A program made the position numbers and the translations under genes. DNA of 64,000 bases, taken from Synechococcus sp. 1G10. Lineage in GTDB: Bacteria; Cyanobacteriota; Cyanobacteriia; PCC-6307; Cyanobiaceae. Location: contig NZ_NQKW01000013.1 of assembly GCF_002252625.1 (NCBI RefSeq), positions 1 to 64,000 on the forward strand, in the 5' to 3' direction. Shown here in pieces: positions 26,952 through 61,652 of this stretch (positions within the stretch are counted from its first letter, which is position 1; each line of letters opens with the position of its first letter). The notes below the pieces were generated by a model. That model was not told the origin of the DNA and made no database searches. It was given only the letters and a program-made list of their open reading frames with translations.

Positions 26952-27016
26952 CCCCCACCCCGATCCGCCCAGCTCGCCCGCCATACAGTCGCTTGGCTCC
27001 ATCGCCTGCAGCTGAT

Positions 27017-28862: not shown

Positions 28863-28890
28863 CGCAGGGCCCCGGTCGCTGCAGCGGAGC

Positions 28891-31446: not shown

Positions 31447-31529
31447 AGAGTCCCAGGCGACAGGGCTTTGCGTCCGCGGATACAGGAGGTGAAGCTGGGC
31501 TAGCAACCTCTCACCCTTACGATCCTGCG

Positions 31530-32579
31530 ATGATGGTTGGCCCCGATTCCTCGGATCCTTCCGCTCCAGATCAGGCGCTGACACCTTCGGGTGAAATCTG
31601 GCACTGCTGGAATGGACGATCCGTCCTTATCACCGGTGGCCTGGGGTTCATCGGCTCCACCCTCGCCATCCGCCTCTACGGACTCGGCGCCCGGGTCACG
31701 GTGATCGACAGCCTCATCCCTGATTACGGCGGCAATCAATACAACCTGGAAGGCCTGCAGGAGAAGATCCGGATCAATCTCTCCGACATCCGCGATCGCT
31801 TCTCTCTCGAGGCCCTGCTCCACGGGCAGGAGGTGATCTTCAATCTGGCCGGCCAGACCAGCCACCTCGATTCGATGCGTGATCCCCAAACGGATCTGGC
31901 GATCAATGCCACGGCGCAACTGAGCCTGCTCGAGCTCTGCCGAAGCGTCAATCCAGGGGCGCGGATCGTCTTCGCCAGTACCCGCCAGCTCTATGGCCGG
32001 CCCCACTATCTGCCGGTGGATGAGCGACATCCGGTGGATCCGGTGGACGTGAATGGCATCAACAAACTCTCCGGCGAGATGTACCATCGCCTCTACCATC
32101 AGGTCTATGGGCTGAGCACCTGTGTGCTGCGACTCACCAACACGATCGGCCCCCGCATGCGCATACGTGATGCCCGCCAGACGTTTCTCGGTGTATGGAT
32201 TCGGCAGTTGATCCGGCAGGAACCGATTGAGGTATGGGGTGGAGACCAGCTGCGCGACTTCAATGATGTTGAGGATGTGGTGGATGCGATGCTGCTGGCC
32301 GGTGGTCGAGCTGATCTGCCGCCTGGTCCTTATAATCTAGGATCAGCAGAAACCATCAGCCTGCGCCAGCTTGCCGAACTGCTCATCGAGCTCCATGGCA
32401 GCGGCGAACTGATCGTCACCCCCTTCCCTGAAGAACGCCGCAAGATCGACATCGGCGACTACTACTCCTGCTATTCACGCTTCCAGCAGGCCTGTGGCTG
32501 GCAGCCGAGCCGCAGTCTCCGGCACACGCTCAAGCGCACCCTGGCCTATTACCAGCAGCATGGGGAGCATTATCTGTGA
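31530..32579 (+). CDS. Extended-SDR NAD(P)-dependent sugar epimerase/dehydratase
   Basis: 349 residues. The Rossmann motif VLITGGLGFIGSTLAIRL is at residues ~32-48. The usual catalytic Y-x-x-x-K is replaced: the sequence reads VDVNGINKLSGEMY, so Asn stands where Tyr is expected and Lys is kept. RLTNTIGPRMRIRDARQTF and VWGGDQLRDFNDVEDVVDA are the sugar-binding blocks. It overlaps the next gene by GTGA. With the aminotransferase it should make an amino-sugar nucleotide, but the missing Tyr makes the exact chemistry uncertain. The partner copy at 45358 is broken, so this is the only complete one. Confidence 0.85.
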   Translation: MMVGPDSSDPSAPDQALTPSGEIWHCWNGRSVLITGGLGFIGSTLAIRLYGLGARVTVIDSLIPDYGGNQYNLEGLQEKIRINLSDIRDRFSLEALLHGQEVIFNLAGQTSHLDSMRDPQTDLAINATAQLSLLELCRSVNPGARIVFASTRQLYGRPHYLPVDERHPVDPVDVNGINKLSGEMYHRLYHQVYGLSTCVLRLTNTIGPRMRIRDARQTFLGVWIRQLIRQEPIEVWGGDQLRDFNDVEDVVDAMLLAGGRADLPPGPYNLGSAETISLRQLAELLIELHGSGELIVTPFPEERRKIDIGDYYSCYSRFQQACGWQPSRSLRHTLKRTLAYYQQHGEHYL

Positions 32580-33787
32580 GCCACGACTCCCCTGCCGTGA
32601 TCGCCAGCCCCAGCTCTGACCCGCCGGCTGATCCGTTCAATTTTCCCCAGCAGGAGCTCTGGCGCGACGGAGCGCTGCTGGGCGAGGCGCTGGATCGGAT
32701 GCGCGCATCCGGTCAGGTGATCCTGGGCGAAGGGGTGCGCCGTTTCGAGCAGGCCCTCGGCGCCTGGCTGGGCGGGGACGATCCCGCCCCCGAGGTGGTC
32801 GGTGTGGCCAACGGCACCGACGCCCTCGAACTGGCGCTGCGCGGTAGCGGGGTGCAGGCCGGCGACCGGGTGCTGCTGCCCTCGCACACCGCCTACGCCA
32901 CCCTCGCCGCGGTCCTGCGGATCGACGCCGTGCCGGTGTTCGTCGACCTGGAGCCCGGTCGTGCGGTGCTGGCGCCCGACCACGTGGACGCCCTCCTGAG
33001 CCGCAGTGCCGGCAGCCCCGGCGAACGGCCCCGTGCCCTGATCGCCGTGCATCTCTATGGGGAGGCCTGTGATCTCGATGCCCTCGGGGCGCTCTGCGAT
33101 CACCACGACGTGCCCCTTATCGAGGATTGTGCTCAGGCCACCGGCACCCTGGTCGGCGGCCGACCGGTCGGCACACGCGGGCGGTTCGCTGCCTTCAGCT
33201 TCTACCCAACCAAGAACCTGGCGGCCTTCGGCGACGGCGGGGCCCTGGTGGTGAATCACCCGGAGGATGCGGAGTGGGCCCGGCGCAGCCGCTTCTATGG
33301 CTGGGATGAGCGGCGGGAGGCGGTGCAGTTCGGCATCAACAGCCGTCTGGATGAACTGCAGGCCTGGGTGCTGCTCGGCAAGCTGCCCCATCTCGAGCAG
33401 CGCATCCAGCAGCGGCGCCAGGTGGCCGCCTGGTACGCCGAGCTGCTGGGCGATCGCGTCACCCTGCCCCGTGATGGCTCCGACTGGCGGCACGGCTTCC
33501 ATCTGCATGTGGTGGAGGTGGAACCGTCGCTGCGGGACCCTCTGCTGGCGGCCGGCCGGAAGGCGGGACTGCCCCTGGCGGTCCACTACCCGCTCCCCTG
33601 CCATCGCCATCCCCACGTGATCCAGCGCTTCGGCGCCGCCGGCGGCCTGCCCCGCACCGAGGAGCTGGTGGCCCGGATCCTGAGCCTGCCTCTGCATCCC
33701 TATCTGCCCAGGGACCAGGTGGAGAGGGTCTGCGAAGGGCTGCTGCCCCTTCTGGAAGGAGCATTCCAAGCCGGGGGAACGGGCTGA
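32576..33787 (+). CDS. DegT/DnrJ/EryC1/StrS sugar aminotransferase
   Basis: 403 residues from GTG 32576. GVANGTDALELALRGSGVQAG is the PLP-phosphate region (core: NGTDALELAL), PLIEDCAQATG holds the Asp that binds the PLP nitrogen, and FSFYPTKNLAAFGDGGAL carries the Schiff-base Lys near residue 213. NSRLDELQAWVL is the conserved substrate-side block. The enzyme aminates a keto-sugar nucleotide, presumably the product of the upstream SDR. Its stop overlaps the methyltransferase start as TGATG. The second copy at 46343 has a frameshift. Confidence 0.93.
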   Translation: MSHDSPAVIASPSSDPPADPFNFPQQELWRDGALLGEALDRMRASGQVILGEGVRRFEQALGAWLGGDDPAPEVVGVANGTDALELALRGSGVQAGDRVLLPSHTAYATLAAVLRIDAVPVFVDLEPGRAVLAPDHVDALLSRSAGSPGERPRALIAVHLYGEACDLDALGALCDHHDVPLIEDCAQATGTLVGGRPVGTRGRFAAFSFYPTKNLAAFGDGGALVVNHPEDAEWARRSRFYGWDERREAVQFGINSRLDELQAWVLLGKLPHLEQRIQQRRQVAAWYAELLGDRVTLPRDGSDWRHGFHLHVVEVEPSLRDPLLAAGRKAGLPLAVHYPLPCHRHPHVIQRFGAAGGLPRTEELVARILSLPLHPYLPRDQVERVCEGLLPLLEGAFQAGGTG

Positions 33788-34563
33788 TGCAGCCCCGGGA
33801 ATACGAGGTGATGGCGGCCCTGGAGCAGGGGCACTGGTGGTACCGGGCCCTGCGGCGTCGTCTGCTGAAGCGACTGGAGCGGGAAGCCCACCGGCGGGGG
33901 CGCCCCCTTCAGGTGTTCGACGCCGGTTGCGGCACCGGAGGGCTTCTGCAGGAACTCGGCCGCTGCCCGGAGATCGCCCGGGCCGAGGGCTGTGATCTCC
34001 ATCCCCAGGCGCTGGACCATGCCCGCGCACGGGGCCTGGCCGTGAGGCGGTGTTCGGTGAATGAACTGGACGAGGTGCCGGCTGGCTGGGACGTGGTCCT
34101 GTCGGTGGATGTGCTCTACCACCGCCAGGTCATTCCCGAGCGCGCCATGGCGGGCATGGCCGGCCTGCTGGCACCGGGTGGACTGCTGCTGCTCAACGTG
34201 GCCGCCATGCCGGGCCTGGCCCGCCGCCATGATCAGCGCGTGATGGGGGCCCGCCGCTTCCTGCCGGACGGCCTCAGGCTGCTGGCCGCGTCCGCCGGCC
34301 TGCGGACGGAGGAGCTCACCTACTGGAACTCCTGGCTGACGCCACCCCTGTGGCTCTGGCTCCGCCTGCAGCGTTTGACAGCTTCCGGTGTGGAGGGCGA
34401 CGGCGACGCCCCCTCCGAACTGACGCTTCCCCCCGTCTGGCTGAACGGCAGTCTGGAGAAGCTGCTGGAACTGGAACGTCGACTTGCGAGGCTGCTGCCC
34501 CTTCCCTGGGGCAGCTCTCTGCTGCTCGCGGCCCGCAAACCCATGGCCCAGGAGGTCTGCTGA
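33787..34563 (+). CDS. Class I SAM-dependent methyltransferase
   Basis: 258 residues. Motif I is VFDAGCGTGGLLQEL, followed by the acidic EGCDLHPQALDHAR and DVVLSVDVLYHRQVIPE in the motif II-III region. An N-terminal HWWYRALRRRLL block is often seen in polysaccharide-locus methyltransferases. The C-terminus (SSLLLAARKP) is the last strand of the fold. It could methylate the amino sugar or a lipid-linked intermediate; the acceptor is not shown by sequence. Its paralog at 47523 is intact, so both copies may work. Confidence 0.85.
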   Translation: MQPREYEVMAALEQGHWWYRALRRRLLKRLEREAHRRGRPLQVFDAGCGTGGLLQELGRCPEIARAEGCDLHPQALDHARARGLAVRRCSVNELDEVPAGWDVVLSVDVLYHRQVIPERAMAGMAGLLAPGGLLLLNVAAMPGLARRHDQRVMGARRFLPDGLRLLAASAGLRTEELTYWNSWLTPPLWLWLRLQRLTASGVEGDGDAPSELTLPPVWLNGSLEKLLELERRLARLLPLPWGSSLLLAARKPMAQEVC

Positions 34564-34564
34564 G

Positions 34565-35584
34565 ATGCCCGTCGATCATCACGAACTCGCCGGCTGGGGC
34601 GAGGCTCCGGAACTCAGCCTCGTGATCCCCCTTTATCGCAGCAGCGGATCGATCGAGGCGCTGATCCAGCGGCTGGAGGGGCTATCCCTGCCCTGTGCCT
34701 GGGAGCTGGTGATGGTGGATGACGGCAGCCCCGACGACACCGTCGAGCGGGCCCGCCGCCGCCTCCGCGGCAGTCCCCTGCGGGTGCTGCTGATCCGTCA
34801 TGCCCGCAACTACGGCGAACATCAGGCGGTGCTCACGGGCTACCGCCACAGCCGGGGCCGCTGGGTCATCAACCTCGATGACGACCTGCAGAATCCACCC
34901 GAGGAAGCCCTGCGGCTGTGGCGGATGGCCGAGGAGCAGGAGCTGGATGTGGTCTACGGCAACCATCGGGAGAAACGTCATGCCCCCTGGAGGAACCTGG
35001 GCAGCCGCTTCGCCAACCGCACGGCCAACTGGCTGCTGGATCTGCCGGAACGCCTCTACCTCTCCAGCTTCCGCTGTGTGGCCGGGCCGATCGCCCGCCA
35101 GGTGGCTCAGTACAGCGCTCCGTACCCCTACATCGACGGTCTGCTCTCCCAGTACACCCAGCGGATCGGCACGCTGACGGTGAACCACGACCCCCGCCTC
35201 GACGGCGAAAGCAACTACAACATGCGGCGTCTGGTGCGGCTCTGGCTCACGATCTTCACCAGCTTCTCGATCATGCCGCTGCGGCTGGCCTCCCTGCTGG
35301 GCCTGGCCCTGGCCTTCACCGGTCTGCTTGCGATCGCGATCCTGCTGGTGCAGGCCCTCGTGCAGGGCCTGGCCGTGGCGGGCTGGCTCTCGATCATCTC
35401 GGCCATCCTGATCTTCGGCGGCCTCCAGTGCCTGCTGATCGGCGTGCTCGGCGAGTATCTCGGCCGGATCTTCCTCACGGTCAGCGGCAAGCCCCAGTCG
35501 TTCGCCCGCAGCATCGAGGCCGTGGGCACCTGGCCGGTTGAGACACCGGCGAGCAGGGCCAGCGACCCGGCCCGACGAGCGTGA
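34565..35584 (+). CDS. GtrB-like polyprenyl-phosphate glycosyltransferase (GT2)
   Basis: 339 residues. The GT2/DPM1 catalytic domain has LSLVIPLYRSSGSIEALI, LVMVDDGSPDDTVERA, RHARNYGEHQAVLTGY and WVINLDDDLQNPPEE. Two C-terminal membrane helices follow (residues ~235-265 and ~270-300). This layout matches GtrB/ArnC-like enzymes that load a sugar onto undecaprenyl phosphate on the inner face of the membrane. It begins one base after the methyltransferase stop, and the GtrA-like gene overlaps its end. The paralog at 48340 is also intact. Confidence 0.9.
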   Translation: MPVDHHELAGWGEAPELSLVIPLYRSSGSIEALIQRLEGLSLPCAWELVMVDDGSPDDTVERARRRLRGSPLRVLLIRHARNYGEHQAVLTGYRHSRGRWVINLDDDLQNPPEEALRLWRMAEEQELDVVYGNHREKRHAPWRNLGSRFANRTANWLLDLPERLYLSSFRCVAGPIARQVAQYSAPYPYIDGLLSQYTQRIGTLTVNHDPRLDGESNYNMRRLVRLWLTIFTSFSIMPLRLASLLGLALAFTGLLAIAILLVQALVQGLAVAGWLSIISAILIFGGLQCLLIGVLGEYLGRIFLTVSGKPQSFARSIEAVGTWPVETPASRASDPARRA

Positions 35585-36022
35585 CCAGGAATCGCCGACC
35601 CCTGCCGCTGCTGCGCCGCGGGCTCGATTCCACGCTCGTGCGCTTCGTGCTGGTGGGTGGATTCGGCGAGCTGCTTACCTGGGCTTGTTCGCCCTTGCGC
35701 TCCGCGCCGGGGTGGGCTCCCTGGGGGCCATCGTGCTGGCGGGTGGCACCTGCCTGGTGGTCAATGTGCTCCTGCATGCGCGCATCAGCTTCCTTGTGCG
35801 CTTCCCCGGGCCCTGCGTATCGACTACCTGCTGATCCAGGGCTTCTGTCTGCTGCTGGCCCTGGGTCTGGGGTGGCTGCTGGAGCAGCAATCCACACCGC
35901 CTGCGGGGGTCGAGATCGCGACCCTGCTGGTGTGGGCAGGCACGTCGTTCCTGCTCACCCGCTGGCGCTATCGCAGGCCCGCGGGGTTGGACTCCAAGCA
36001 GACCAGCCACTGGCCCCGGTAG
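35581..36022 (+). pseudogene. GtrA-like flippase with two single-base deletions
   Basis: The sequence reads STLVRFVLVGGFGELL in the first frame, then YLGLFALALRAGVGSLGAIV after a shift near 35675, then RIDYLLIQGFCLLLALGLGW after a second shift near 35812, ending LLTRW and a stop at 36022. The stretch is 442 bases long, exactly two fewer than the 444-base intact copy at 49323, so two one-base deletions explain it. GtrA proteins are four-helix membrane proteins thought to flip lipid-linked sugars. Unless these are sequencing errors this copy is dead, and the copy at 49323 would have to serve both cassettes. Confidence 0.88.
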
Positions 36023-37551
36023 GTCACGATCGATCCGCGCTCCGGCCAGGCCCGGCAGCGGGGCAGGGAACCCCGAACTTCCGCCTCGTTGCCCTCGCTG
36101 CGGTAGGCGAGGTGCTCCACCTCGATGCCGAGCAGCTGGCGGAAGATCGCCTGGATGCTCCAGCTCTGGCGGAACGCCGATTCGCCCACGCTGCTCCAAT
36201 GAGGGAACGGCTGATTGTGCTCCGTGGTTCCGAACAGCCGGAAGGTCTGGGGAGGAGGATCGGAGGCGGTGCTCTTCAAGGAAAGAGCGCGGATATCGGC
36301 GGCGATCGCCTGGGCCATGGCCATGTCGCGCCGTTCCAGAAGCTGGGTCAGTTCCCACACCCGGGAGGCGAAGGCGCTCTGGGGAATCACGTAGCCCACG
36401 ATCAGCAGGCTCACCAGGGCGCGGCTGCCGAGGCGCGCCCAGCGGCCACGAGCCCCGGGAGACCCCGCCAGCCAGGCCAGCGCGATCACGCTGAAGGCGA
36501 CGATGCCCACATTGCCCAGGCAGAACGAACGGCGGGGGAACCCGGCCTCCAGCACAACGAATAGCAGGAACGGTGACTGGGTGAGCAAGCCGGCCGCCAG
36601 CCACAGCAGCGCCAGGCGATGGCGGCGTTCCCTGCCCGGGGCGGCTCGCCGCCACAGGGCGATGCTGAGCGTGACCAGCAGCAGCAGAAACACACAGGAG
36701 AGGAGGATCTGGGCCGGCCGCCAGAGCAGGGAAACATCGGTGGCGTAGACCTCCTGGTAGACGCCCGCATCCAGCACCTTCTCCACCAGTCGGGAGAGGG
36801 TGGCGAAGCCAGTGCGCTCATTCGCGCTCTGGCCCCTCATCGCTAGCTGGGCGATGCCGTAGTAGATGAGGGACCCGCTGATCACGCCGGCCAGCAGCCG
36901 CAGCCAACTGCCGGGGGCCGGCTGCCTGGATCCCAGCGCCCGGGCCAGGGCGTCGAGCCCGATCAGCACCAGCCCCAGCGCTCCCGTGGGTTGGTAGATG
37001 CCCATGGCCACGACCACCATCGCGACGCCGAGCACCGCATCGCGCCAGCGCCGCCCGAGCAAGGGTGGGCAGGGGTTGTAGGCGATCAGCACACCGCCCC
37101 AGAGCGACAGGGCCCCGGGCAGCAGATAGAGGCCGATGGCGAAGCTGAAGTTGAACAGATCCAGCAGGTAGGCGTGCAGGGAGATCAGCAGGGCGGCCAG
37201 CGCGATCCAGGGAGCCGTCAGGTACGGCAGGAACAGAGGAAGGGCGGCGGCGATGGCGAACAGGGAACCCGCCGCCAGCAGCCAGCCGAAGAACGGCGAG
37301 AAGGCGTGCTGGAACAGCAGGGCATGCACCAGATCCCAGGCGGGGCGACTCTGTTGGGCCTGCTGAATCGCGGAGCCGATCAGGGCCCAGTCGTCGACAT
37401 TGAGGGTGGGGGAGGTGACCTCCTGCCAGTGCACGGCCAGGAAGAGAGCCAGGAACACCAGCCCCCAGATCTCCGTGCCGGGCGAGCTGAGGGCGGCGGG
37501 CAAGGTGGTGACCGCGCCGTCCGTCGGCCACGGCGAATCTTGCTCACTCAT
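35968..37551 (-). CDS. GtrII-like polytopic membrane glucosyltransferase, copy A
   Basis: About 527 residues with roughly ten membrane helices. EVTSPTLNVDDWALIGSAIQ after the first helix gives the early loop with two Asp residues, and VAMGIYQPTGALGLVLI is a further conserved-looking element; both fit the serotype-converting glucosyltransferase family (Glucos_trans_II). Such enzymes move a sugar from undecaprenyl phosphate to polysaccharide on the outer face. The soluble C-terminal ~150 residues contain HWSSVGESAFRQSWSIQAIF. ATG 37551 is chosen by comparison with the paralog; an ATG at 37590 is possible. It is convergent with, and overlaps, the broken GtrA-like gene by 55 bases. Confidence 0.8.
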   Translation of the reverse strand: MSEQDSPWPTDGAVTTLPAALSSPGTEIWGLVFLALFLAVHWQEVTSPTLNVDDWALIGSAIQQAQQSRPAWDLVHALLFQHAFSPFFGWLLAAGSLFAIAAALPLFLPYLTAPWIALAALLISLHAYLLDLFNFSFAIGLYLLPGALSLWGGVLIAYNPCPPLLGRRWRDAVLGVAMVVVAMGIYQPTGALGLVLIGLDALARALGSRQPAPGSWLRLLAGVISGSLIYYGIAQLAMRGQSANERTGFATLSRLVEKVLDAGVYQEVYATDVSLLWRPAQILLSCVFLLLLVTLSIALWRRAAPGRERRHRLALLWLAAGLLTQSPFLLFVVLEAGFPRRSFCLGNVGIVAFSVIALAWLAGSPGARGRWARLGSRALVSLLIVGYVIPQSAFASRVWELTQLLERRDMAMAQAIAADIRALSLKSTASDPPPQTFRLFGTTEHNQPFPHWSSVGESAFRQSWSIQAIFRQLLGIEVEHLAYRSEGNEAEVRGSLPRCRAWPERGSIVTYRGQWLVCLESNPAGLR

Positions 37552-37629
37552 GCTGAACGCTGCTCCCAGACGACTCCGACTCCGGGCCATGGCCGGTCCC
37601 GGACCCGTGCTGCGGTTGACAGCATGGTG

Positions 37630-38490
37630 TCATTCACGCCACATCACCCCGGCATCCAGGCCGGCCTCGGCACAAACTGACGCGCGCAGGCGTTCATCGA
37701 CGTCACCGGGCAGCGCCACCCTCACCACCGTTCCGGTTCTGCACCAGCGCAGGGCCGCCAGCAGCATCAGGCTCTCTCCCACCACCACAGTCCCCCGCCA
37801 GAACGGCAGCACCTGTTCGGGGGGGACCTGCAGGCATCGATCCCCCTCCGCCAGCGGCAGGGTCCAGGAGCGCTTTGCGTCCACCGGATGCGGGATCAGC
37901 CACCAGGGCCGCGGCAGGGCAGCCGCATCCTCCTGCAGCCGCTCCACCCCTGGGGAATCGATGATCAGGGTCCCCCGTGGCGGCGGCAGCGGGACCTCCC
38001 GGGCACCGTCGGGAGGGGCTTCCTGGCGATCGAACAGGGGTCCCAGGTCGCGGCAGCGGAAGCGCGCGCACCAGCGGGCCCGCCAGGCCGGGGCATCGGA
38101 GAAGAGCCAGTAGTCGATCCCCTCAGGGAACGCCCGGGGATCGACCGCCCGGGGCGCGGCCCTGTACTGGTCCAGGCCGTCGTCGAGCAGCACGATCCGG
38201 TGGGCCCGGGCCGCGATCCGCCGCAGGGCCCGGCCGGCGTTGTGCAGATGGGCCAGGCGCAGTTCCCGCACCAGGCCCGCCAGGGCCGGCGGCATCAGCA
38301 GCGCCATGGTGAGAGGAGTCACCGGCAGGCGCAAGGGCCAGAGCCGGCGATCCTCCGGCCCCAGCCGCATGCGCCGCGGCTCCCAGAGCAGGATCTCAAG
38401 CGGCGCAGGGCCGGTGAGGGCCGGGTTCCGCCGCAGGCGCCGCGCCGCCTCCAGGTGCAGGGCGTTGCTCGCCAGCGTCAGGCGGATCAC
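37630..38490 (-). CDS. Putative sialyltransferase-like glycosyltransferase (GT52/polysialyltransferase-like)
   Basis: About 286 residues from a GTG at 38490 that shares GTGA with the preceding gene. The opening LTLASNALHLEAARRLRR, HRIVLLDDGLDQYRA near the middle (the D-D-G of sialyltransferase-like GT-B enzymes), WWLIPHPVDAKRSW (His-Pro element) and VVVGESLMLLAAL near the end are in the order seen in bacterial GT52 and polysialyltransferase-like families. No membrane helix is seen. Donor is unknown and could be CMP-Kdo or CMP-sialate. It is the last gene of a minus-strand set starting at the acyltransferase gene. Confidence 0.5.
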   Translation of the reverse strand: MIRLTLASNALHLEAARRLRRNPALTGPAPLEILLWEPRRMRLGPEDRRLWPLRLPVTPLTMALLMPPALAGLVRELRLAHLHNAGRALRRIAARAHRIVLLDDGLDQYRAAPRAVDPRAFPEGIDYWLFSDAPAWRARWCARFRCRDLGPLFDRQEAPPDGAREVPLPPPRGTLIIDSPGVERLQEDAAALPRPWWLIPHPVDAKRSWTLPLAEGDRCLQVPPEQVLPFWRGTVVVGESLMLLAALRWCRTGTVVRVALPGDVDERLRASVCAEAGLDAGVMWRE

Positions 38491-43324: not shown

Positions 43325-43412
43325 GGGTGGAGAGGGGCAGACCCTGAACGCTACGAACGGGGTGACACGGCCTCCGGAGAGCCCGGACCACAGGGCGGAG
43401 CGGCCGGCCGCA

Positions 43413-44682
43413 TCATTTGCCCAGGTAGGCCACCAGGTAGTACCTGAGCTGGATGGCCCAGATCATGATCCCCAAGAAGCCCAGCAGCCAGGGGGTGATC
43501 AGGTTGCCGGGTCGCCGCGGCAGCAGGGTGGTGAGTCCGCCCACCCAGCCCAGCACCACCGTGGGCAGGAAATGGATGCCGTAGATCCACGCGTGCTGGC
43601 TGAGCGATTGGTGCAGCAGCGGCACGAACAGCCAGAGCTGGGCCGCGGCCAGGATCAGCAGCAGCTGCCGGCGGCGCCCATGGCTGCGCAGGAGGGTGAT
43701 GGCGAACAGAACCACGCCCAGCATCCAGATCGCCGCATGTTCGAGCAGATGTCTGGCGGGCAGCCCCGACGACTCGATCGTGGCACCGGACATCTGGAAG
43801 ATCAGAAACTGCAGGGAATCCAGCACGCCCTGGTGCTCGCTGGTGCTGGCGGTGAGCCCCATCCGATCGAACAGGCTGCTCCCCTGAAGGCCCTGCGGAA
43901 ACATCAGATTGGCGATCAGGCGCTGGATCCAGTAGAGGGCCATCGCCACCACCGCGGTGAGGGAGATCGCCCGCAGACCCTTGAGAAGGTCGACTTCCAG
44001 CCGCAGCCGCCCAGGCCGCGGCCACCGGCCAGGCCCCGGGGGGGTGTCGCCGGCTCCACCAGTCCCCCAGGAGTGCCACGCCCAGCAGCATCAGCAGAAG
44101 GCCCAGGTAATCGGGCTCGTCGATGATGGTGAAGCGCAGGGCGGCCTCGTTGGTGATCGTGATCGCATAGGCCACCACGAACACCAACTGGCGCGTGCCA
44201 CGGCCCCGATCCGCGAAGCACAGGGTGGCGATCCTGCCGAGCACCAGCCCCAGGGCGATCAGGAACAGGAACGCCAGGCTGATCTTGACGGCGGGAAACC
44301 CCGCTTCCCCACCGACGAGTCGGTAGCCCACCCAGTAGGGAAGCAGATAGAGCGGGGGATAGGACTGATAGAGCGTTGGGGGGAACTGATGGGGTGGGTA
44401 GTAAGTCCCTCCCAGGGGGAAGAAGCCCGCCATCCGGAAGAAGCCATGGTTCTCCCAGGCCTGCACCGCCCGGAGGGTTTCACTGCCCAAGGCATAGACG
44501 TGGTCGCCGACATGCTGCGAGAGCAGGCGTGTGAAGGTGAGCCACGTGATCGCCGCCAGCAGGCCGATCAGGGGCAGGTTCTCCCTCAGGGATGGGGAGA
44601 CCTTCCAGCCTGGGTTCCAGCTCCGGCCACCCTGCCGCCAGAAGGAGAAGCGCCCCAGTTGGTGAATCATTCCGAGTCCCAA
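43413..44682 (-). pseudogene. Polytopic membrane protein, GT39/PMT-like, with one frameshift
   Basis: Two halves read in different frames: residues from 44682 to about 43990 ([19 protein letters not shown], a loop [19 protein letters not shown], then several helices) and from about 43988 to 43413 ([19 protein letters not shown] and more helices, ending YYLVAYLGK). The join lies at the CGACC/TTCTC run near 43988-43992, where one extra base breaks the frame; the total length of 1270 bases fits a one-base insertion. The profile resembles polyprenyl-phosphate-dependent membrane glycosyltransferases, but no clear Asp-Asp/Glu motif confirms this. It may be inactive, unless the shift is a sequencing error. 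Confidence 0.65.
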
Positions 44683-44829
44683 TCGCGGCGACGGTACAGG
44701 CTTCCCCTAGAGGTGAGGGAGTCCTGGAATACTTCGCAGCGATCGGGCCCCAAGGGTCCCCCATGGCTCTGTCCTTCCCCTGCCCCCCTCCTTCGGGTGT
44801 CGGGTGGCACGGCGCCGGGGCCTGCTTCC

Positions 44830-45218
44830 GGCCTCAACGACGCCCAGCGCCGGGCGGTGGATCATCGCGACGGGCACCTGCTGGTGGTGGCCGGTGCCGG
44901 CAGCGGCAAGACCCGCGCCCTCACCCACCGCATCGCCCATCTGATCGGCCAACACGGCGTTGATCCCCACCAGCTGCTGGCCGTCACCTTCACCAACAAG
45001 GCGGCGCGGGAGATGAAGGAACGGCTGGAGCTGCTGCTGGCCCAGCCCTTCAGCCCCAGCAGCAGCGGCAGCTACGCAACCGCATCTACCGGGAGGTCAC
45101 CAAAGAGCTCTGGATCGGGACCTTCCATGCCCTGTTCGCAAGGCTGCTGCGCTTCGACATCGACAAGTACAAGGACCCGGAAGGGCTGAGCGATGCCGAC
45201 CTGGACGCGGAGCGGTGA
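44830..45218 (+). pseudogene. Damaged 5' fragment of pcrA
   Basis: The fragment reads [32 protein letters not shown] (Walker A) and [20 protein letters not shown], then after a deletion and frame change [20 protein letters not shown] and [12 protein letters not shown]. This parallels codons ~6-137 of the intact gene at 51843. Nucleotide identity over the first ~240 bases is very high, about 95% by eye. Two deletions (about 27 and 10 bases) lie after LLLAQ. Homology stops near 45189; a short tail of unrelated codons follows to a TGA. Confidence 0.88.
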
Positions 45219-45357
45219 TGCCCCCTGTTCCTCCTGGAGGACAGCGCGACCCAGGGGCGGCAGCAGCTGCACGACCTAGCCTGAACGCCGATGCAGACCC
45301 TTCGCCTGACGGACGCATGAGCCAGTCGTCAGGCCGGGGCGATCACGCCAGCAGCGC
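45219..45357. other. Junction sequence between pcrA fragment and truncated SDR
   Basis: About 140 bases that match neither pcrA nor the sequence before SDR copy A. One frame reads PLFLLEDSATQGRQQLHDLA and then stops (TGA near 45281), which looks like the genuine C-terminus of some third gene whose body is absent. The rest is unassigned. Confidence 0.4.
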
Positions 45358-46311
45358 CTCGGCTTCATCGGCTCCACCCTGGCGATCCGGCTGTGCGACC
45401 TGGGAGCCCGGGTGACAGTGATCGACAGCCTGGTGCCGGAGTACGGGGGCAATCTCCATAACCTCAGCGGCTATGCGGAACGCGTACGCATCAACCTGTC
45501 CGACATTCGCGACTGCTTCTCGCTGGAGGCGCTGCTGGGGGGGCAGGAGGTGATCTTCAACCTGGCCGGACAGACAAGCCACCTCGATTCCATGAAAGAT
45601 CCCCAGACGGATCTGGCGATCAACTTCACGGCTCAGCTGAGCCTTCTGCAACTGTGTCGCCGCGTCAATCCCGGCGCTCGGATCGTGTTCGCCAGCACGA
45701 GATAGCTCTATGGACGCCCCGCCTACCTACCGGTGGACGAGGACCATCCCGTGCATCCGATTGACGTCAACGGGATCAACAAGTTGTCCGCAGAGCTCTA
45801 TCATCGCCTGTACCACGAGGTGTATGGACTGAGCACCTGCGTGCTGCGACTCACCAACACGATCGGACCGCGCATGCGCATCCGCGATGCCCGTCAGACC
45901 TTCCTTGGTATCTGGGTCAGACAGCTGCTGGAGCGGCAGCCGATTCAGGTCTGGGGAGGTGACCAGCTGCGCGATTTCAACGACGTCGAGGACGTGGTGG
46001 ATGCCCTGTTGCTGGCAGGCAGCGATCCCTCCCTGCTACCGGGTCCGTACAACCTTGGCGCCCCTGAGACGATCAGCCTGCGACAGCTGGCAGAACTGCT
46101 GATCGAGGTCCATGGCGGGGGGCATCTGGAGATCCTGCCCTTTCCGGAAGAGCGCCGCAGGATCGACATCGGCAACTACTACTCCTCCTACAGCCGCTTT
46201 GAGCAGGCCACGGGCTGGTCGCCCAGCAGGCCGCTGCGCGCCACGCTGCAACGCACCATCACCTACTACCAACAGCACGCGCGCCATTACCTGCCGGTCC
46301 AGCCGGACTGA
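45358..46311 (+). pseudogene. SDR epimerase/dehydratase, 5'-truncated with a nonsense codon
   Basis: Homology to the SDR at 31530 begins abruptly at LGFIGSTLAIRL, so the first ~35 residues, including the first Gly of the NAD motif, are missing. An in-frame TAG at 45703-45705 replaces the CAG (Gln) of R-Q-L-Y-G in the other copy. The remainder is open to 46311 and still contains VDVNGINKLSAELYH, so the Tyr-to-Asn change is shared and predates the duplication. No start codon or ribosome site suits the fragment. It is clearly a pseudogene. Confidence 0.92.
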
Positions 46312-46342
46312 CGCCGGCCACCAGCCCGACCCCAGCCATGCC

Positions 46343-47523
46343 ATGACCCAGTCGCCCCCCGGTGCCGACCCCGGCGACCCCTTCAACTTTCCCCTCCAGG
46401 AGCTGCACCGCGATGGCGGACTGCTGCTGGAGGCCCTGGCGCACATGCGCGCCTCGGGGGAGCTGATCCTGGGGGAGGGGGTGCGCCGCTTCGAGCAGGC
46501 CTTCGGCAGCTGGCTGGCCGCCGGCAGCGACCCGCCGGCGGTGATCGGCGTGGCCAACGGCACCGATGCCCTCGAGCTGGCGCTCCGCTGCAGCGGCCTG
46601 GGGAGCGGGGATCGCGTGCTGCTGCCCGCGCACACGGCCTACGCCACCGTCGCGGCGGTGCTTCGACTGGGGGCCGAGCCGGTTTTCGTGGATGTCGAGC
46701 CCGACGTGCCCCTGCTGTCGGTGGCCCATCTGGAGGCGCTGCTGGCGGGGGAGGATCTGCGCCGGCGTCCAGCCCGGGCCCTGATCGCCGTGCATCTCTA
46801 CGGTGCTGCCTGCGATCTCGATGCCCTCAGCGCCCTGTGTGAGCGCCATGACCTCACCCTGATCGAGGACTGTGCCCAGGCCTGCGGCACCCTGGTCGGG
46901 GGGAGGCCTGTCGGCACCCGCGGACGCTTCGGGGCCTTCAGCTTCTACCCCACCAAGAATCTGGCGGCCTTCGGTGACGGCGGCGCCCTGGTGGTGAACC
47001 GCCCCGAGGATGCCGAGCTGGCCCGCCGCAGCCGTTGCTATGGCTGGGACGGATCCCGGCAGGCCGTTCAGTTCGGCGTCAACAGCCGGCTCGATGAGCT
47101 GCAGGCCTGGGTGTTGCTCGGCAAGCTCGCCCATCTTGAGGCGCGGATCGCCCAGCGCCGGCAGGTGGCCGCCTGGTACGACGCGCGCCTGGATGCCGCC
47201 TCACCGTCCCCGGGGACGGTGAGGCGTGGCGGCACAGCTATCACCTCTACGTGGTCGAGGTGCCGGAAGGGCATCGCGATGCCTTGCTGGCCGCCGGTCG
47301 TCAGGCCGGGCTGCCCCTGGCCCTGCACTACCCCCAGGCCTGCCACCAGCATCCCCACGTGATCCGCAGCTTCGGCCCGCCGCCGGAGCTGCCACACACC
47401 AGAGCGCTTCTCGGCCGGATTCTGTCCCTGCCCCTGCACCCCTACCTGGAGGAACGGCATTTGGAGCAGGTGTGCACCCAGCTGCTGCCGCTGCTCGATG
47501 CCCCCGCGCCCCGGATCCGCTGA
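46343..47523 (+). pseudogene. DegT-family aminotransferase with a frameshift
   Basis: From ATG 46343 the frame encodes the first ~286 residues, with NGTDALELAL, LIEDCAQACG and FSFYPTKNLAAFGDGG (catalytic Lys) intact. Near 47200, in the run GCCGCCTCACCGTC, one base is missing compared with the intact copy. The frame then continues elsewhere as VPGDGEAWRHSYHLYVVEV to a stop at 47523. The total length of 1181 bases is one short of a multiple of three. The C-terminal domain would be lost, so the product should be inactive unless the shift is a sequencing error. Confidence 0.88.
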
Positions 47524-48335
47524 TGCTGCCCGAGGAGTACCGCAGCCTGGCGCGCCTGGAGGAGCGACACTGGTGGTTCATCGCCCTGCGCCGCCGGCTG
47601 CTGGCGCGGCTGGAGCGGGAAGGCCGGCGGCGCGGCCGACCCCTGCGGGTGTTCGATGCCGGCTGCGGCACCGGGGGACTGCTGCGGGCCCTGAGCCGCC
47701 GCGCCGATGTCGCCCGGGCGGAGGGCTGCGACATCCATCCGCTGGCGCTCGCCCATGCCCGCTCGCTGGGGCTGGAGGTGCGGCACTGCTCCGTCAATGA
47801 CCTGTCGCCTGTGCTCGGCGACTGGGATCTGGTCTGTTCGGTGGATGTGCTCTACCACCGGGATGTCTCCCCCGAGCAGGCCCTGCGGGGCATGGCCGGT
47901 CTTCTGGTGCCGGGGGGCATGCTGCTGCTGAACGTGGCCGCCATGCCCTGCCTGGCTCGCAGCCACGACGTGCGGGTGATGGGAGCCCGGCGCTTCCTGC
48001 CGGCCGGGCTGCACCGGCTGGTCGAGGCGAGCGGTTTCTCCGTAGAGGAGATCCGCTACTGGAATGGAACGCTGACGCCGCTGCTGTGGCTGCGCCTGTG
48101 GCTGCGCCTGTGGCTGCGCCTGCGGCTGGGTGACCTGATGCGGCGTCCCGAGGGGGCATCCGGCGCCGAGGATTGCCCAGGGGACTCGGAGCTGCGGCTC
48201 CCCCCAGCCTGGATCAACCGGAGCCTAGGCACTCTGCTGGAGCTGGAACGCCTGCTGGCCCCCCTGCTGCCGCAACCCTGGGGCAGCTCCCTGCTGCTGG
48301 TGGCCCGCAAGCCCCACGCCCCGCACCCTGCCTGA
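47523..48335 (+). CDS. Class I SAM-dependent methyltransferase, copy B
   Basis: 270 residues. VFDAGCGTGGLLRAL is motif I, with EGCDIHPLALAHAR and LVCSVDVLYHRDVSPEQAL following; it is homologous along its length to the protein at 33787. The TGATG overlap with the aminotransferase stop is preserved. A run WLRLWLRLWLRLRL near residue 195, created by a 12-base tandem repeat, lengthens a hydrophobic helix that is short in copy A. Frame and motifs are intact, so it is probably functional even though the two genes upstream are broken. Confidence 0.85.
   Translation: MLPEEYRSLARLEERHWWFIALRRRLLARLEREGRRRGRPLRVFDAGCGTGGLLRALSRRADVARAEGCDIHPLALAHARSLGLEVRHCSVNDLSPVLGDWDLVCSVDVLYHRDVSPEQALRGMAGLLVPGGMLLLNVAAMPCLARSHDVRVMGARRFLPAGLHRLVEASGFSVEEIRYWNGTLTPLLWLRLWLRLWLRLRLGDLMRRPEGASGAEDCPGDSELRLPPAWINRSLGTLLELERLLAPLLPQPWGSSLLLVARKPHAPHPA
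48084..48119 (+). repeat. 12-base tandem repeat, three units, inside the methyltransferase gene
   Basis: CTGTGGCTGCGC occurs three times in a row, with a degenerate partial unit after it, encoding L-W-L-R three times. Copy A has only one related unit (LWLWLRLQ), so the array expanded in copy B by slippage without breaking the frame. Confidence 0.9.
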
Positions 48336-48339
48336 GCCG

Positions 48340-49326
48340 ATGACGCCCCCCTCCCGACCCGCGCCTGTGGAACTGAGCCTCGTGATTCCGCTGTACCGCA
48401 GCGGGGGCTGCGTCGAGGCGCTGATCGGGAGGCTCGAGGCCCTGGCGATCCCCTGTTCCTGGGAGCTGGTGCTGGTCGATGACGGCAGTCCGGACGACAC
48501 GCTGGAGCAGGTCCGGCGGCGCCTTCAGCACACCAGCCTGCGGGGTCTGGTGCTGCGCCATGCCCGGAATTACGGCGAGCATGCGGCGGTGCTGACCGGC
48601 TATCGCCACAGCCAGGGTGCCTGGATCGTCAATCTCGATGACGACCTGCAGAATCCGCCCGAGGAAGCGCTGCGGCTCTGGCGGAAGGCCCGCGAGGAGG
48701 AGCTCGACGTGGTGTACGGCGAATACCGGGAGAAGCAGCACGCCACCTGGCGCAATCTCGGCAGCCGCTTCGCCAATCGCACCGCCAACTGGTTGCTGGA
48801 TCTGCCTGAGCGCTTCTATCTTTCCAGCTTTCGCTGTGTCTCCGGGCCGATCGCCAGGCGCGTGGCGGAGTATCAGGGTCCCTATCCCTACATCGATGGT
48901 CTGCTGTCGCAGTACACGCAGCGCATCGGCAGCCTGGAGGTGAGCCACGACAGCCGCTATAACGGCGTCAGCAACTACAACCTGCGTCGTCTGGTGCGGC
49001 TGTGGCTGACCATCTTCACCAGCTTCTCGATCATGCCGCTCCGGCTGGCCTCGCTGCTGGGGATGGGCCTGGCCGGTTTCGGGCTGGTGGTGATCGTGCT
49101 GCTGCTGTTGCAGGTTCTGCTGCTCGGCTCCGATGTGGCAGGCTGGCTGTCGATCATCTGTGCCATCCTGATCTTCGGCGGCCTGCAGTGCCTGCTGATC
49201 GGTGTGATGGGTGAGTATCTGGGCCGCATCTTCCTCACGGTGAGCCATAAGCCCCAGTCATTCGTGCGCAGCATGGAAGCCATCGGTGCCCCGGGAGCTC
49301 CTGTGACAGGGGGCAGCCAAGGGTGA
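48340..49326 (+). CDS. GtrB-like polyprenyl-phosphate glycosyltransferase, copy B
   Basis: 328 residues, very similar to the protein at 34565. ELSLVIPLYRSGGCVEALI, LVLVDDGSPDDTLEQV, RHARNYGEHAAVLTGY, IVNLDDDLQNPPEEALRLW and FANRTANWLLDLPERFYLSS are shared blocks. Two C-terminal helices (residues ~233-262 and ~268-298) anchor it. It starts a few bases after the methyltransferase stop, and its stop overlaps the GtrA-like GTG. It should load a sugar onto undecaprenyl phosphate for the GtrA-like flippase. Confidence 0.9.
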   Translation: MTPPSRPAPVELSLVIPLYRSGGCVEALIGRLEALAIPCSWELVLVDDGSPDDTLEQVRRRLQHTSLRGLVLRHARNYGEHAAVLTGYRHSQGAWIVNLDDDLQNPPEEALRLWRKAREEELDVVYGEYREKQHATWRNLGSRFANRTANWLLDLPERFYLSSFRCVSGPIARRVAEYQGPYPYIDGLLSQYTQRIGSLEVSHDSRYNGVSNYNLRRLVRLWLTIFTSFSIMPLRLASLLGMGLAGFGLVVIVLLLLQVLLLGSDVAGWLSIICAILIFGGLQCLLIGVMGEYLGRIFLTVSHKPQSFVRSMEAIGAPGAPVTGGSQG

Positions 49327-49766
49327 GGGCACCCCTGTTCCGTCGCCTGCGCCATCTCGGCCCGGTGCGCTGGCTGAACCACAGTCTGGTGCGCTTCCTG
49401 CTGGTGGGGGGGCTCGGCGAACTGCTGTATCTGCTGCTGTTCATGGTGGCCTCCCGCGCCGGCACGCCGACACTCGTGGCGATCACCGTCGCGGGCGGGA
49501 TCTGTCTGTTGCTGAATGCCGTGCTGCATGCCCGGATCAGCTTCCGGGTCCGCTTCCAGCGGCAGCTGCTGCTGCACTATCTGCTGATCCAGGCGGCGTG
49601 CCTGCTGCTGGCTCTCGGGCTGGGCTGGATCCTCAAGCGGCAAGAGTCGCCGGAGGTGTTGGTGGGCCTGGCAACCATGCTGCTCTGGTCCAGCATCTCC
49701 TTCCTGCTGACCCGCTGGAGCTTTCAGCGGGCGCGCACCAGCGGGCAACCAGCCCGGAAAGGATGA
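49323..49766 (+). CDS. GtrA-like flippase, intact copy
   Basis: 147 residues from GTG 49323 (GTGA overlap with the GT2 stop). There are four membrane helices at residues ~20-43, ~47-66, ~80-98 and ~108-128, beginning with LVRFLLVGGLGELLYLLLF and including LLLNAVLHARISFRVRF, the N-x-x-x-x-x-x-x-x-x-F element of GtrA proteins. It is predicted to move the lipid-linked sugar from the inner to the outer membrane face. As the counterpart in copy A has two frameshifts, this is probably the only working one. Confidence 0.88.
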   Translation: MRAPLFRRLRHLGPVRWLNHSLVRFLLVGGLGELLYLLLFMVASRAGTPTLVAITVAGGICLLLNAVLHARISFRVRFQRQLLLHYLLIQAACLLLALGLGWILKRQESPEVLVGLATMLLWSSISFLLTRWSFQRARTSGQPARKG

Positions 49767-49925
49767 ACACGAATCCTGGAAGGCAAAGCTACTGATCGCG
49801 TCCCAATGGGCCGGCTCCGGTTTGCCTGACCCATCGCATGGCTCAGTCGCCAGCATTCAGGCTGGCTGACGACAGGGGCTGGGGCCCCTGCGCCGATCGA
49901 GGGCCTCGTCAGGCCGGCGCGCAGC

Positions 49926-51560
49926 TCAGCGACGCTCGCCCGCAGTTGATGGAGCCGTGGAGCTGGCCTCCAGGCACACCAGCCAGAGGCCCCGGTAGGG
50001 CACGATCGCATCGGGGGCAGGCCAGGCACCGCAGGCTGGCAGCGTGCTGCGGTCCACGGAGGCTGGCGTGCCCTCGCTGCCTGAGCGGAGATGCGTCACC
50101 TCCAGCCCCAGCAGCTGGCGGAAGATCGCCTCGATGCTCCAGCTGGCACGAAAGGCTGATTCCCCGACACTGCTCCAGTGGGTGAAGGGCTGATTGCTCT
50201 CGGTGGTGCCGAACAGCCGGAATGGCTCGGGCGGCAGGCGGGGGTTGGCACGGGAGAGGGACCGCACGTCGGCGGCGATCGCCTGAGCCATCGCCATGTC
50301 GCGCCGCTCGAGCCGCTGGGTGAGCTCCCAGATCCGCGAGGCGAAGGCAGCTTGGGGGATCACGTAGCCCACGATCAGCAAGCCCACCAACCCCCTGATG
50401 ATCAGGCGGCTGGGAAGCGCACGGGGCACAGCCCGACCCGAGAGCCAGGCCATGGCCACCACGCTGAAGCCCACGATGCCGACGTTGCCGAGGGCGAAGG
50501 CGCGGGCCGGGAAGCCGACCTCCAGCGCCGTGTAGAGACAGAAGGGCCAGACGGTGCACCAACCTGCGGACAGCCACAGCAGGCCCAGCTGCCGCCGGCG
50601 GGCCGCCACCGTGGGGAGCGTGCGCCAGAGGTGAACGCTCAGCCACAGCACCATCAGCAGGAAGATGCTGGAGAGCAGGATCTGGGCCGGTCGCCAGAGC
50701 AGTGGAACGTTGGTGGCGTAGACATCCCGATACCGGTCGATGGACCCGAGCTTCACTAGGAACATGGAGAAGCTGGCCAGCTCCGTGCGGTAGTCGGCGA
50801 CGTGGCCGATAATCGCCAGACGGGCGGTCAGGCCGTAGATCAGCAAGGCGAGCAGCAGTCCGGCCGCGAGGCGCAGCCAGCTCCAGGGGTACGGGCGGAA
50901 GGTGCCGAGGCTGCGGCCTAGGGCGTCGAAGCCGAACAGCACCAGCACCAGCATGGCGGGGGGCTGATAGATGCCGATCGCGAACGCCACCATCGCCACT
51001 CCGAGCACGGCATCGCGCCAGCGCCGCCCCAGCAGCGGCGGGCCCGGGTTGTAGGCCACCAGCACCCCGCCCCAGAGGGAGAGCGCCGCCGGCAGGAGGT
51101 AGAGGCCGATGGCGAAACCGAAGTTGAACAGGTCCAGCAGGAAGGTATGCAGGGAGATCAGCAGGGCGGCCAGCGCGATCCAGGCCGGTGCCAGCGACGG
51201 CAGGAACAACGACAGACAGGCGGCGATCGCGAACAGAGAGCCCGCCGCGATCAGCCAGCCGTAGAAGGGAGAGAAGGCGTCCTGGAACAGCAGCCCGTAG
51301 ATCAGATCCCAGGCGGGGCGGCTCTCATAGGCCTGACGGATCGGCTTGCCGATCAGGGCCCAGTCGTCGACGTTGTAAGTGGGGGAGGTCACCTCCTGCC
51401 AGTGGATGGCGAGGAAGACCACCAGAAACAACAGCCCCCAGCGGAGCGTGGCGCGCGACCGCAGCGCGACCGGCAGGGCTGCCCAGCGTCCGGGCGCGCC
51501 GCAGCCGCGCTCCGGCACCGAGGGTCCCGAAGTGGGACGTTCATCCGGTCGCATCGTCAT
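49926..51560 (-). CDS. GtrII-like polytopic membrane glucosyltransferase, copy B
   Basis: About 544 residues with roughly ten helices, homologous along the full length to the protein at 35968. TSPTYNVDDWALIGKPIRQ follows the first helix, YNPGPPLLGRRWRDAVLGVA and IGIYQPPAMLVLVLFGF are conserved, and HWSSVGESAFRASWSIEAIF lies in the soluble tail. The ATG at 51560 is chosen by comparison with copy A; the frame extends to 51740 without homology. It should transfer a sugar from undecaprenyl phosphate to an outer glycan. It is convergent with the GtrA-like gene across a 159-base gap and divergent from pcrA. Confidence 0.82.
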   Translation of the reverse strand: MTMRPDERPTSGPSVPERGCGAPGRWAALPVALRSRATLRWGLLFLVVFLAIHWQEVTSPTYNVDDWALIGKPIRQAYESRPAWDLIYGLLFQDAFSPFYGWLIAAGSLFAIAACLSLFLPSLAPAWIALAALLISLHTFLLDLFNFGFAIGLYLLPAALSLWGGVLVAYNPGPPLLGRRWRDAVLGVAMVAFAIGIYQPPAMLVLVLFGFDALGRSLGTFRPYPWSWLRLAAGLLLALLIYGLTARLAIIGHVADYRTELASFSMFLVKLGSIDRYRDVYATNVPLLWRPAQILLSSIFLLMVLWLSVHLWRTLPTVAARRRQLGLLWLSAGWCTVWPFCLYTALEVGFPARAFALGNVGIVGFSVVAMAWLSGRAVPRALPSRLIIRGLVGLLIVGYVIPQAAFASRIWELTQRLERRDMAMAQAIAADVRSLSRANPRLPPEPFRLFGTTESNQPFTHWSSVGESAFRASWSIEAIFRQLLGLEVTHLRSGSEGTPASVDRSTLPACGAWPAPDAIVPYRGLWLVCLEASSTAPSTAGERR

Positions 51561-61633: not shown

Positions 61634-61652
61634 TGGGGGAAGGAGAAGGGCG

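What the first reader, a model, noticed from the sequence alone, without database searches (positions are those of the whole stretch)
31530..51560. Two copies of a six-gene Gtr/amino-sugar cassette with complementary gene decay
The same six genes occur twice in the same order and orientation. Copy A keeps intact SDR and DegT aminotransferase but has a GtrA-like gene with two one-base deletions (442 versus 444 bases). Copy B keeps intact GtrA-like but has a truncated SDR with CAG-to-TAG and an aminotransferase missing one base. The union is one complete set. This suggests each copy lost what the other supplies, making the two cassettes jointly essential for one glycan. Established: GtrA/GtrB/GtrII form a three-part glycan decoration system. 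Inference: complementary degeneration.
Basis: partly seen in the sequence, partly recalled or inferred. Interest (0 to 1): 0.85.

Follow-up and report, generated by a model that had tools for sequence, protein, structure and literature searches.

The report
Two fused alleles sharing sugar genes
A picocyanobacterium-like genome carries two old, diverged versions of one sugar-decoration gene set side by side, apparently joined by recombination, and together they hold one working copy of the key sugar-making genes but two different sugar-attaching enzymes.

Summary
In detail: two six-gene cassettes (A 31530-37590, B 45355-51650) in the same order, about 73% identical in DNA. GtrA_A is frameshifted twice; SDR_B is 5'-truncated with an in-frame TAG; AT_B is frameshifted. 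The genome has one intact SDR, aminotransferase and GtrA of this kind, so the union is one full set. B is not a fresh copy of A. Both lie in a diverged block (about 30.4-51.85 kb) with flanks mostly 94-98% identical to two sister species that lack both cassettes. B sits between a dead 5' fragment of uvrD and the whole uvrD, and its SDR starts at codon 37 at that junction: cut by recombination, not slow decay. Three lesions missing each other is expected by chance (about 0.7). Sharing is better supported by relatives: those with two GT-C transferases have one GtrA and one cassette-type GT2, the B-type transferase standing alone; others split the set over two loci. Against it, one relative's only GtrA is itself broken. 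Most likely: two alleles fused in tandem, one lipid-linked amino-sugar supply feeding two GT-C enzymes, as suggested for some Salmonella gtr operons. Sequencing error at the frameshifts is unlikely but not excluded.

The parts
30400..51850 (.). Diverged block bounded by near-identical flanks (allelic exchange between a GT4 gene and uvrD)
   Evidence: 400-b bins against G005/G006: 96-98% left of ~30.4 kb except 89-91% in one or two bins at 29.2-29.6 kb; 72-85% at 30.4-31.4 kb; inside unmatched or 65-90% (repeats take the best match), 93% at the uvrD fragment; 91-98% from uvrD rightward
31530..32579 (+). SDR_A, NAD-dependent epimerase/dehydratase, intact
   Evidence: PF01370 4.2e-43; only close intact SDR in genome
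32576..33787 (+). AT_A, DegT/DnrJ/EryC1/StrS sugar aminotransferase, intact
   Evidence: PF01041 1.4e-87; PDB 7b0d 2.9e-63, WbpE 3nyu 1.5e-54
33787..34563 (+). MT_A, SAM methyltransferase, intact
   Evidence: PF13489 2.2e-11
34568..35584 (+). GT2_A, polyprenyl-phosphate glycosyltransferase (ArnC/GtrB-like), intact
   Evidence: PDB 9bhc 2.5e-42 and Synechocystis GtrB (sll0501) 5ekp 1.7e-36
35581..36022 (+). GtrA_A, broken: two one-base deletions put its three parts in three frames
35968..37590 (-). GTC_A, polytopic GT-C transferase, intact, convergent
   Evidence: 540 aa; GT-C fold matches, best Z 14.3; ArnT 5f15 Z 11.1, 394 aligned
44828..45189 (+). 5' fragment of uvrD/pcrA, dead (37-nt deletion, frame lost)
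   Evidence: spacing change 7028 to 7065, frame switch; 94% to 51857-52252, 92.4-93.3% to seven of eight sibling uvrD and 81.6% to the eighth; UvrD N-terminus only
45190..45354 (.). junction stretch between uvrD fragment and SDR_B
   Evidence: only short matches (up to 41 b, E above 0.01 outside the SDR start) in the window and fetched loci
45355..46311 (+). SDR_B, broken: starts at codon 37 of A, TAG at 45703-45705
46334..47530 (+). AT_B, broken: one-base deletion near 47195
47521..48335 (+). MT_B, intact
   Evidence: PF13649 9.9e-12; 66% aa to MT_A
48340..49326 (+). GT2_B, intact
   Evidence: PF00535 1.1e-22; 77% aa to GT2_A
49323..49766 (+). GtrA_B, intact, four hydrophobic segments; only intact GtrA of this kind in genome
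   Evidence: PF04138 3.8e-10, 40.4 bits against cut-off 26.1
49926..51740 (-). GTC_B, GT-C transferase, intact ORF (homology to about 51500); orthologous to orphan genes in G165, G279, G372
51849..54236 (+). uvrD/pcrA, whole; right edge of the block
   Evidence: PF00580 1.9e-86, PF13361 5.5e-78; 96% to G005

Best explanation
The region is a tandem fusion of two diverged alleles of one surface-glycan locus. Recombination joined an A-type allele, cut inside uvrD, to a B-type allele, cut inside its SDR gene, and the block (about 30.4-51.85 kb) replaced the shorter version that sister species carry. SDR_B was therefore dead on arrival, and AT_B and GtrA_A were lost later as redundant. What remains is one route: SDR_A, AT_A and a methyltransferase make a nucleotide-linked (methylated) amino sugar; a GtrB/ArnC-like GT2 loads it on undecaprenyl phosphate; GtrA_B flips it; two different GT-C enzymes (A and B) attach it outside to a KDO-linked glycan at two positions or acceptors. 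Shown: anatomy, lesions, gene inventory, mosaic edges, junction, gene families. Inferred: order of events, the sugar, flipping, shared use.
For: Eight of eight siblings have no GTC match and only short partial cassette matches; in five of the eight both flanks of site A lie next to each other; uvrD is whole in all eight. Identity drops at ~30.4 kb and returns at uvrD (five siblings). B is bounded by a uvrD 5' fragment and a 5'-cut SDR. A and B pair in trees of SDR 94, AT 100, MT 98, GT2 100, GtrA 91. GTC_B groups with orphan GTCs of three genomes (support 100); those three hold one GtrA and one cassette-type GT2 each, and G165 and G279 one SDR each. 13 of 13 carrier genomes tested have one GtrA match. 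In G366 and G357 SDR-AT-GT2 lie apart from MT-GtrA-GTC. Intact genes keep Ka below Ks (A-B Ka 0.19-0.27 against Ks 0.58-0.70 for MT, GT2, GTC).
Against: No reads, expression or glycan data. The lesion pattern alone is not above chance. Broken AT_B and GtrA_A show no mapped in-frame stop and no loss of codon pattern, so the breaks are very recent or errors. No genome with a lone B-type cassette at uvrD was found: G187 has that layout but another GTC type. MT_B has higher Ka than MT_A to all 11 outgroups, so B may be under weaker constraint.
Confidence: 0.57

Rival explanations
1. Both cassettes are drifting without selection; lesions fall where they fall, and at most one or neither pathway still works.
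For: Non-overlap of lesions has chance probability about 0.7. Eight of eight siblings do without the cassette. B has three dead or cut pieces in a row (uvrD fragment, SDR_B, AT_B). The only GtrA of relative G357 is broken, and G189 has only fragments of the GT-C gene. Raised from 0.25 to 0.27 for the G357 finding.
Against: Both GT-Cs, both GT2s and both MTs are open over their length, with Ka below Ks. In 12 of 13 carrier genomes the GtrA match is in one frame.
Confidence: 0.27
2. The one-base deletions in GtrA_A and AT_B are sequencing or assembly errors, so A is a complete cassette and B lacks only SDR.
For: All frame-corrected pieces still read as good protein without stops. Draft assembly of 84 contigs. 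No reads available.
Against: Other stretches of the same genome show frame-break candidates at the rate of a one-contig sibling (9 in 217 kb against 8 in 200 kb), 8 of the 9 and 8 of the 8 beside a stop or start as at ordinary gene boundaries; the window has 6 in 64 kb, three of them at GtrA_A, AT_B and the uvrD fragment. TAG, SDR truncation and the 37-nt uvrD deletion are not one-base indel errors.
Confidence: 0.15
3. B arose by tandem duplication of A inside this lineage and then diverged.
For: A and B are sisters in five gene trees. The junction (uvrD cut, SDR cut) is what a tandem duplication from SDR to uvrD would leave.
Against: A and B differ by about 27% while the two uvrD 5' copies differ by 6%. 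GTC_B has relatives at 75-76% aa in other genomes against 64% to GTC_A. The genes between GTC_A and uvrD are not repeated after GTC_B.
Confidence: 0.15

Closest known systems
Three-component Gtr O-antigen glycosylation (GtrA, GtrB, Gtr-type) of Shigella and Salmonella phages
   Same: GT2 loading enzyme, small GtrA, polytopic GT-C; GtrA and GtrB reported interchangeable between serotypes while the transferase is type-specific (PMC3259042, passages)
   Different: Carries its own sugar-making genes (SDR, AT, MT); sits in a chromosomal glycan block beside KDO genes; no relative of the GT-C in viral contigs (the block was not scanned for phage genes); the GT-C is not a GtrII by Pfam
Salmonella gtr operons of GtrC family II
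   Same: gtrB carries a conserved deletion while gtrC is intact, and every such genome has a second gtr operon, which the authors say may enable its function (PMC3688519, one Discussion passage)
   Different: Here two alleles of one locus are fused in tandem and the lesions lie on both sides
ArnC/ArnT lipid A aminoarabinose pathway
   Same: GT2 best matches ArnC by sequence; GT-C model aligns along its length with ArnT 5f15 (Z 11.1, 394 aligned)
   Different: ArnC model score is far under the NCBIfam cut-off (150.7 against 529 bits), as are SDR and AT against the ArnA and ArnB models (25 against 777, 136.5 against 631); ArnD was not looked for
Pentofuranose three-component systems (GT136)
   Same: Lipid-linked donor, flippase, GT-C decoration after polymerisation (PMC11127046, passages)
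   Different: That system uses a MATE flippase and a phosphoribose donor; here GtrA and an amino-sugar set

Membership tests
Three-component Gtr-type glycan decoration system | Polyprenyl-phosphate glycosyltransferase (GT2 with C-terminal membrane segments) | tested here: met
   PDB matches to ArnC 2.5e-42 and GtrB sll0501 1.7e-36; C-terminal hydrophobic stretches in both copies
Three-component Gtr-type glycan decoration system | Small four-TM GtrA-family protein | tested here: met
   GtrA_B PF04138 40.4 bits over cut-off 26.1, four segments; GtrA_A is broken
Three-component Gtr-type glycan decoration system | Polytopic GT-C transferase | tested here: met
   By fold only: model pLDDT 64.5; the 42 listed entries with Z 8.1-14.3 are GT-C enzymes or GPI transamidase U-type subunits (four rows) and the next, unrelated row is 4.5. 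Caution: the tool warns that helical models without a clear match can reach Z 14, and plain Foldseek gave no match at 0.001 or better (best AftA 7.2e-3)
Three-component Gtr-type glycan decoration system | Lipid-linked donor, flipping and transfer shown biochemically | not testable with these tools
   needs bench work
GtrII (Pfam Glucos_trans_II, name recalled) | Match to the family profile | tested here: not met
   Not among the three families listed at E up to 10; best is DUF6056 at 0.0018, 17.5 bits under cut-off 27 (HMMER filters drop most weak matches)
Locus replacement by recombination in shared flanks (serotype-switch type) | Near-identical flanks around a diverged block in sister genomes | tested here: met
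   five of eight siblings used
Complementary (reciprocal) degeneration | Lesions avoid hitting one gene in both copies more than chance gives | tested here: not met
   chance 0.67-0.73
Complementary (reciprocal) degeneration | No other intact close copy of the lost genes in the genome | tested here: met

The most novel reading that the evidence does not exclude
The B-type GT-C is a stand-alone, spreading decorator gene: it moves between picocyanobacteria without its donor genes and works wherever a resident cassette already makes the lipid-linked sugar, so one donor pool yields two or more surface patterns (possibly phage-receptor variants). The window shows the intermediate stage, in which the donor genes that came with it are being shed.
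Probability: 0.3. Interest if true: 0.55.

Novelty: new variant of a known kind. Interest (0 to 1): 0.42.

Why it matters
It gives a concrete case in which two alleles of a surface-glycan locus are kept in one genome and reduced to one donor supply with two transferases, a sharing that was proposed for Salmonella gtr operons with further study called for. The relatives (orphan B-type transferases, split cassettes) make the idea testable by gene deletion and glycan analysis in a phototroph, and tie modular sugar decoration to recombination beside uvrD.

Tried and rejected
Recent duplication of A into B: disfavoured on divergence. Programmed frameshifting in GtrA_A: two shifts would be needed; not pursued. 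Phage origin: no relative of the GT-C in viral contigs; one viral contig has a 50% GT2 relative (L131), not followed. Plasmid collection: six records, partial SDR/AT matches only, in Azospirillum, Indioceanicola and Streptomyces. tRNA genes: none in the window. Age of the breaks from codon-position bias: no clear signal beyond intact genes. Frame-switch candidate at 30271 in the window: an ordinary overlap of two full-length genes. A paper search for reciprocal loss in operons gave nothing on point among the 12 of 31 listed; a search on GtrA with picocyanobacteria terms gave no paper on this locus among the 10 of 56 listed, which is not proof that none exists. Papers: PMC3688519, PMC3259042, PMC11127046 and PMC4924310 were seen in passages only; others in listings only.

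Rows dropped: G145 (weak GTC hit, E 8e-5) was not fetched; G329 (GTC cut by contig end) and the degenerate GTC of G189 were left out of the trees; SDR and MT hits under 55% identity were left out of the trees; siblings G002, G003 and G007 were not used. My notebook entries are too strong in one point: they say the orphan GTCs lie in three different contexts, but G165 and G372 share a 165-base match at a corA end; G279 differs. The scan missed the first GtrA_A deletion and cannot see the TAG. One candidate in its other stretches lacked both a nearby stop and start; my look at it used a frame off by one for its upstream part and shows only that an ABC transporter-like frame begins there.
Full report
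WHAT IS THERE. The window is the first 64 kb of a 77 kb contig in a 3.34 Mb draft genome of 84 contigs. A scan of named genomes gave 14 loci with a related GT-C gene: 13 are MAGs, all but one titled as cyanobacteria or Synechococcus (one is titled Bifidobacterium breve, which I take for a mislabel), and one is Synechococcus sp. Tobar12-5m-g. Cassette A (31530-37590) and cassette B (45355-51650) have the same order: SDR, DegT aminotransferase, methyltransferase, GT2, GtrA on the plus strand and a convergent membrane protein (GTC) on the minus strand. They are 73% identical in DNA, so the pair is old.

GENE INVENTORY. In the whole genome the next SDR and AT relatives are at 33% and 41% identity or less, and there is no other GtrA relative at E 0.1 or better. 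So one intact SDR, one AT and one GtrA remain, while MT, GT2 and GTC are intact twice.

HOW IT AROSE. In the eight other genomes of the genus no cassette is present: one search found only short partial matches (the longest, 471 bases at 69%, in SDR of G008) and no GTC. In five of them the left flank (to 31309-31447) and the right flank of site A (from about 37.85 kb) lie 250-380 bases apart; G002, G003 and G007 differ around the site. uvrD is whole in all eight. Against G005 and G006, in bins of 400 bases, the window is 96-98% identical up to about 30.4 kb (with 89-91% in one or two bins at 29.2-29.6 kb), then 72-85% to 31.4 kb, then unmatched or 65-90%, 93% at the uvrD fragment, and 91-98% from the start of uvrD. 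This reads as a replaced block between a GT4 gene and uvrD. Relatives in another genus carry one cassette at site A, then GT genes, in some an acyltransferase, and uvrD. B lies where those genomes have nothing: between a dead 362-base piece of uvrD's 5' end (37-nt deletion) and the whole uvrD. SDR_B homology begins 165 bases after the uvrD piece, and those bases match nothing fetched beyond short pieces. One illegitimate join of an A-type chromosome cut in uvrD to a B-type chromosome cut in SDR explains both truncations at once. G187 shows that a cassette can lie directly beside uvrD, although its GTC is of another type.

TREES. With 8 to 16 sequences per gene, winA and winB form one side of the tree in SDR (94), AT (100), MT (98), GT2 (100) and GtrA (91); in the GTC tree winB joins three orphan genes from G165, G279 and G372 (100) and all these with winA against the rest (100). 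The trees are unrooted nucleotide trees of diverged genes, so they show grouping, not direction of transfer.

SHARING. Of 400 genomes of the family, 15 including this one had a GTC match; the carrier genus g6 was covered by 42 genomes, 11 with a match and 3 of these with two. In the three double carriers the B-type gene stands without the other five genes (19 kb seen in G165 and G279, a 4.6 kb contig in G372), and the second gene belongs to a cassette (complete in G165 and G279; GT2, GtrA and GTC on a short contig in G372). All 13 genomes tested have one GtrA match; in 12 it lies in one frame, but in G357 it lacks roughly 70 bases and changes frame. SDR at E 1e-30 or better was found in 10 of 13, once at 62% identity or more in each; the three without are 64-84% complete. 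The cassette-type GT2 occurs once in G165, G279, G372, G357 and G366, was not found in G303, and occurs twice only in the window genome, of the nine genomes searched. In G366 and G357 SDR, AT and GT2 lie on another contig than MT, GtrA and GTC; in G303 the contig ends within AT. One set thus stands beside two transferases elsewhere, and the genes persist apart. This, not the lesion pattern, is the better argument that the window's two halves act together. The broken GtrA of G357 speaks against GtrA being always needed, unless that MAG is faulty.

CHANCE. Three lesions in 12 gene slots avoid striking one gene twice with probability 0.73; given one lesion in A and two in B, 0.67. If SDR_B was cut by the junction, only AT_B and GtrA_A are decay events. 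The word 'complementary' therefore describes the result but is not evidence of selection by itself.

ARE THE FRAMESHIFTS REAL? A frame-switch scan gave 9 candidates in 217 kb of other stretches of this genome (about 6.5% of it, chosen by me), 8 in 200 kb of the one-contig sibling G003, and 6 in the 64 kb window, three of them at the uvrD fragment, GtrA_A and AT_B. Of the other three, that at 30271 is an overlap of two full-length genes, that at 46305 is the SDR_B/AT_B boundary, and that at 28907 was not followed. There is no sign of genome-wide indel errors. But both broken genes still read well once pieces are laid on the right codons (no stop), so the breaks are recent or errors; reads are needed.

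MECHANISM. GT2 belongs with ArnC and Synechocystis GtrB; GtrA_B matches Pfam GtrA with four hydrophobic segments; the GTC model, of middling confidence (pLDDT 64.5), aligns with GT-C enzymes at Z up to 14.3, the next unrelated row being at 4.5, though plain Foldseek gave nothing at 0.001. SDR and AT match nucleotide-sugar epimerases or dehydratases and sugar aminotransferases without reaching any NCBIfam cut-off. Genes for a KpsF/KdsD-like isomerase (26993-28012), a KdsB-like cytidylyltransferase (28023-29315) and a KdsA-like synthase (60824-61774) and several glycosyltransferases point to a KDO-containing surface glycan as acceptor; this is inference. The best reading is one lipid-linked amino-sugar donor and two GT-C transferases.

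KNOWN PARALLELS. In Shigella GtrA and GtrB are described as interchangeable and the transferase sets the type (PMC3259042, passages). In Salmonella, all genomes with GtrC family II carry a gtrB with a conserved deletion, an intact gtrC and a second gtr operon, and the authors raise the possibility that the second operon supplies the function (PMC3688519, one Discussion passage). The window is a tandem case of the same idea, with sugar-making genes included. PMC11127046 and PMC4924310 were read in passages only.

VERDICT. Observation confirmed; interpretation partly supported. A new variant of a known kind, moderately interesting.

Noticed in passing
L041:9234-10892, L043:10964-12763, L045:2725-4353: Orphan B-type GT-C genes without the other cassette genes; similarity between loci is nearly limited to the gene (82-86%); G165 and G372 share a 165-base corA-end match nearby, G279 differs.
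   Followed up: partly
L128:5845-8968, L129:905-4068: SDR-AT-GT2 modules on contigs other than the MT-GtrA-GTC module: a naturally split form of the system.
   Followed up: partly
L049:6600-6970: The only GtrA of G357 lacks roughly 70 bases in its first third and changes frame there.
   Followed up: partly
window 30400: Sharp recombination edge inside a GT4 gene: identity to two sister species falls from 96-97% to about 80-85%.
   Followed up: yes
window 1-22000: Mostly lower GC (0.45-0.64) than the rest (0.64-0.75), with TPR/DUF6165, NTP-transferase, ABC and HlyD exporter, and weak sulfotransferase matches; looks like a separate region.
   Followed up: no
window 39190-40459: Two neighbouring GT2-like genes with 272-nt repeats 87% alike.
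   Followed up: no
window 63927-63965 and 31177-31214: A 38-39 nt near-repeat in opposite orientation, also present in the GT4 gene region of relatives.
   Followed up: no
L054:8079-8351: G189 has a complete SDR-to-GtrA set but only fragments of the GT-C gene, one with two TAG inside.
   Followed up: no
L131: A viral contig with a 50% identical GT2 relative.
   Followed up: no
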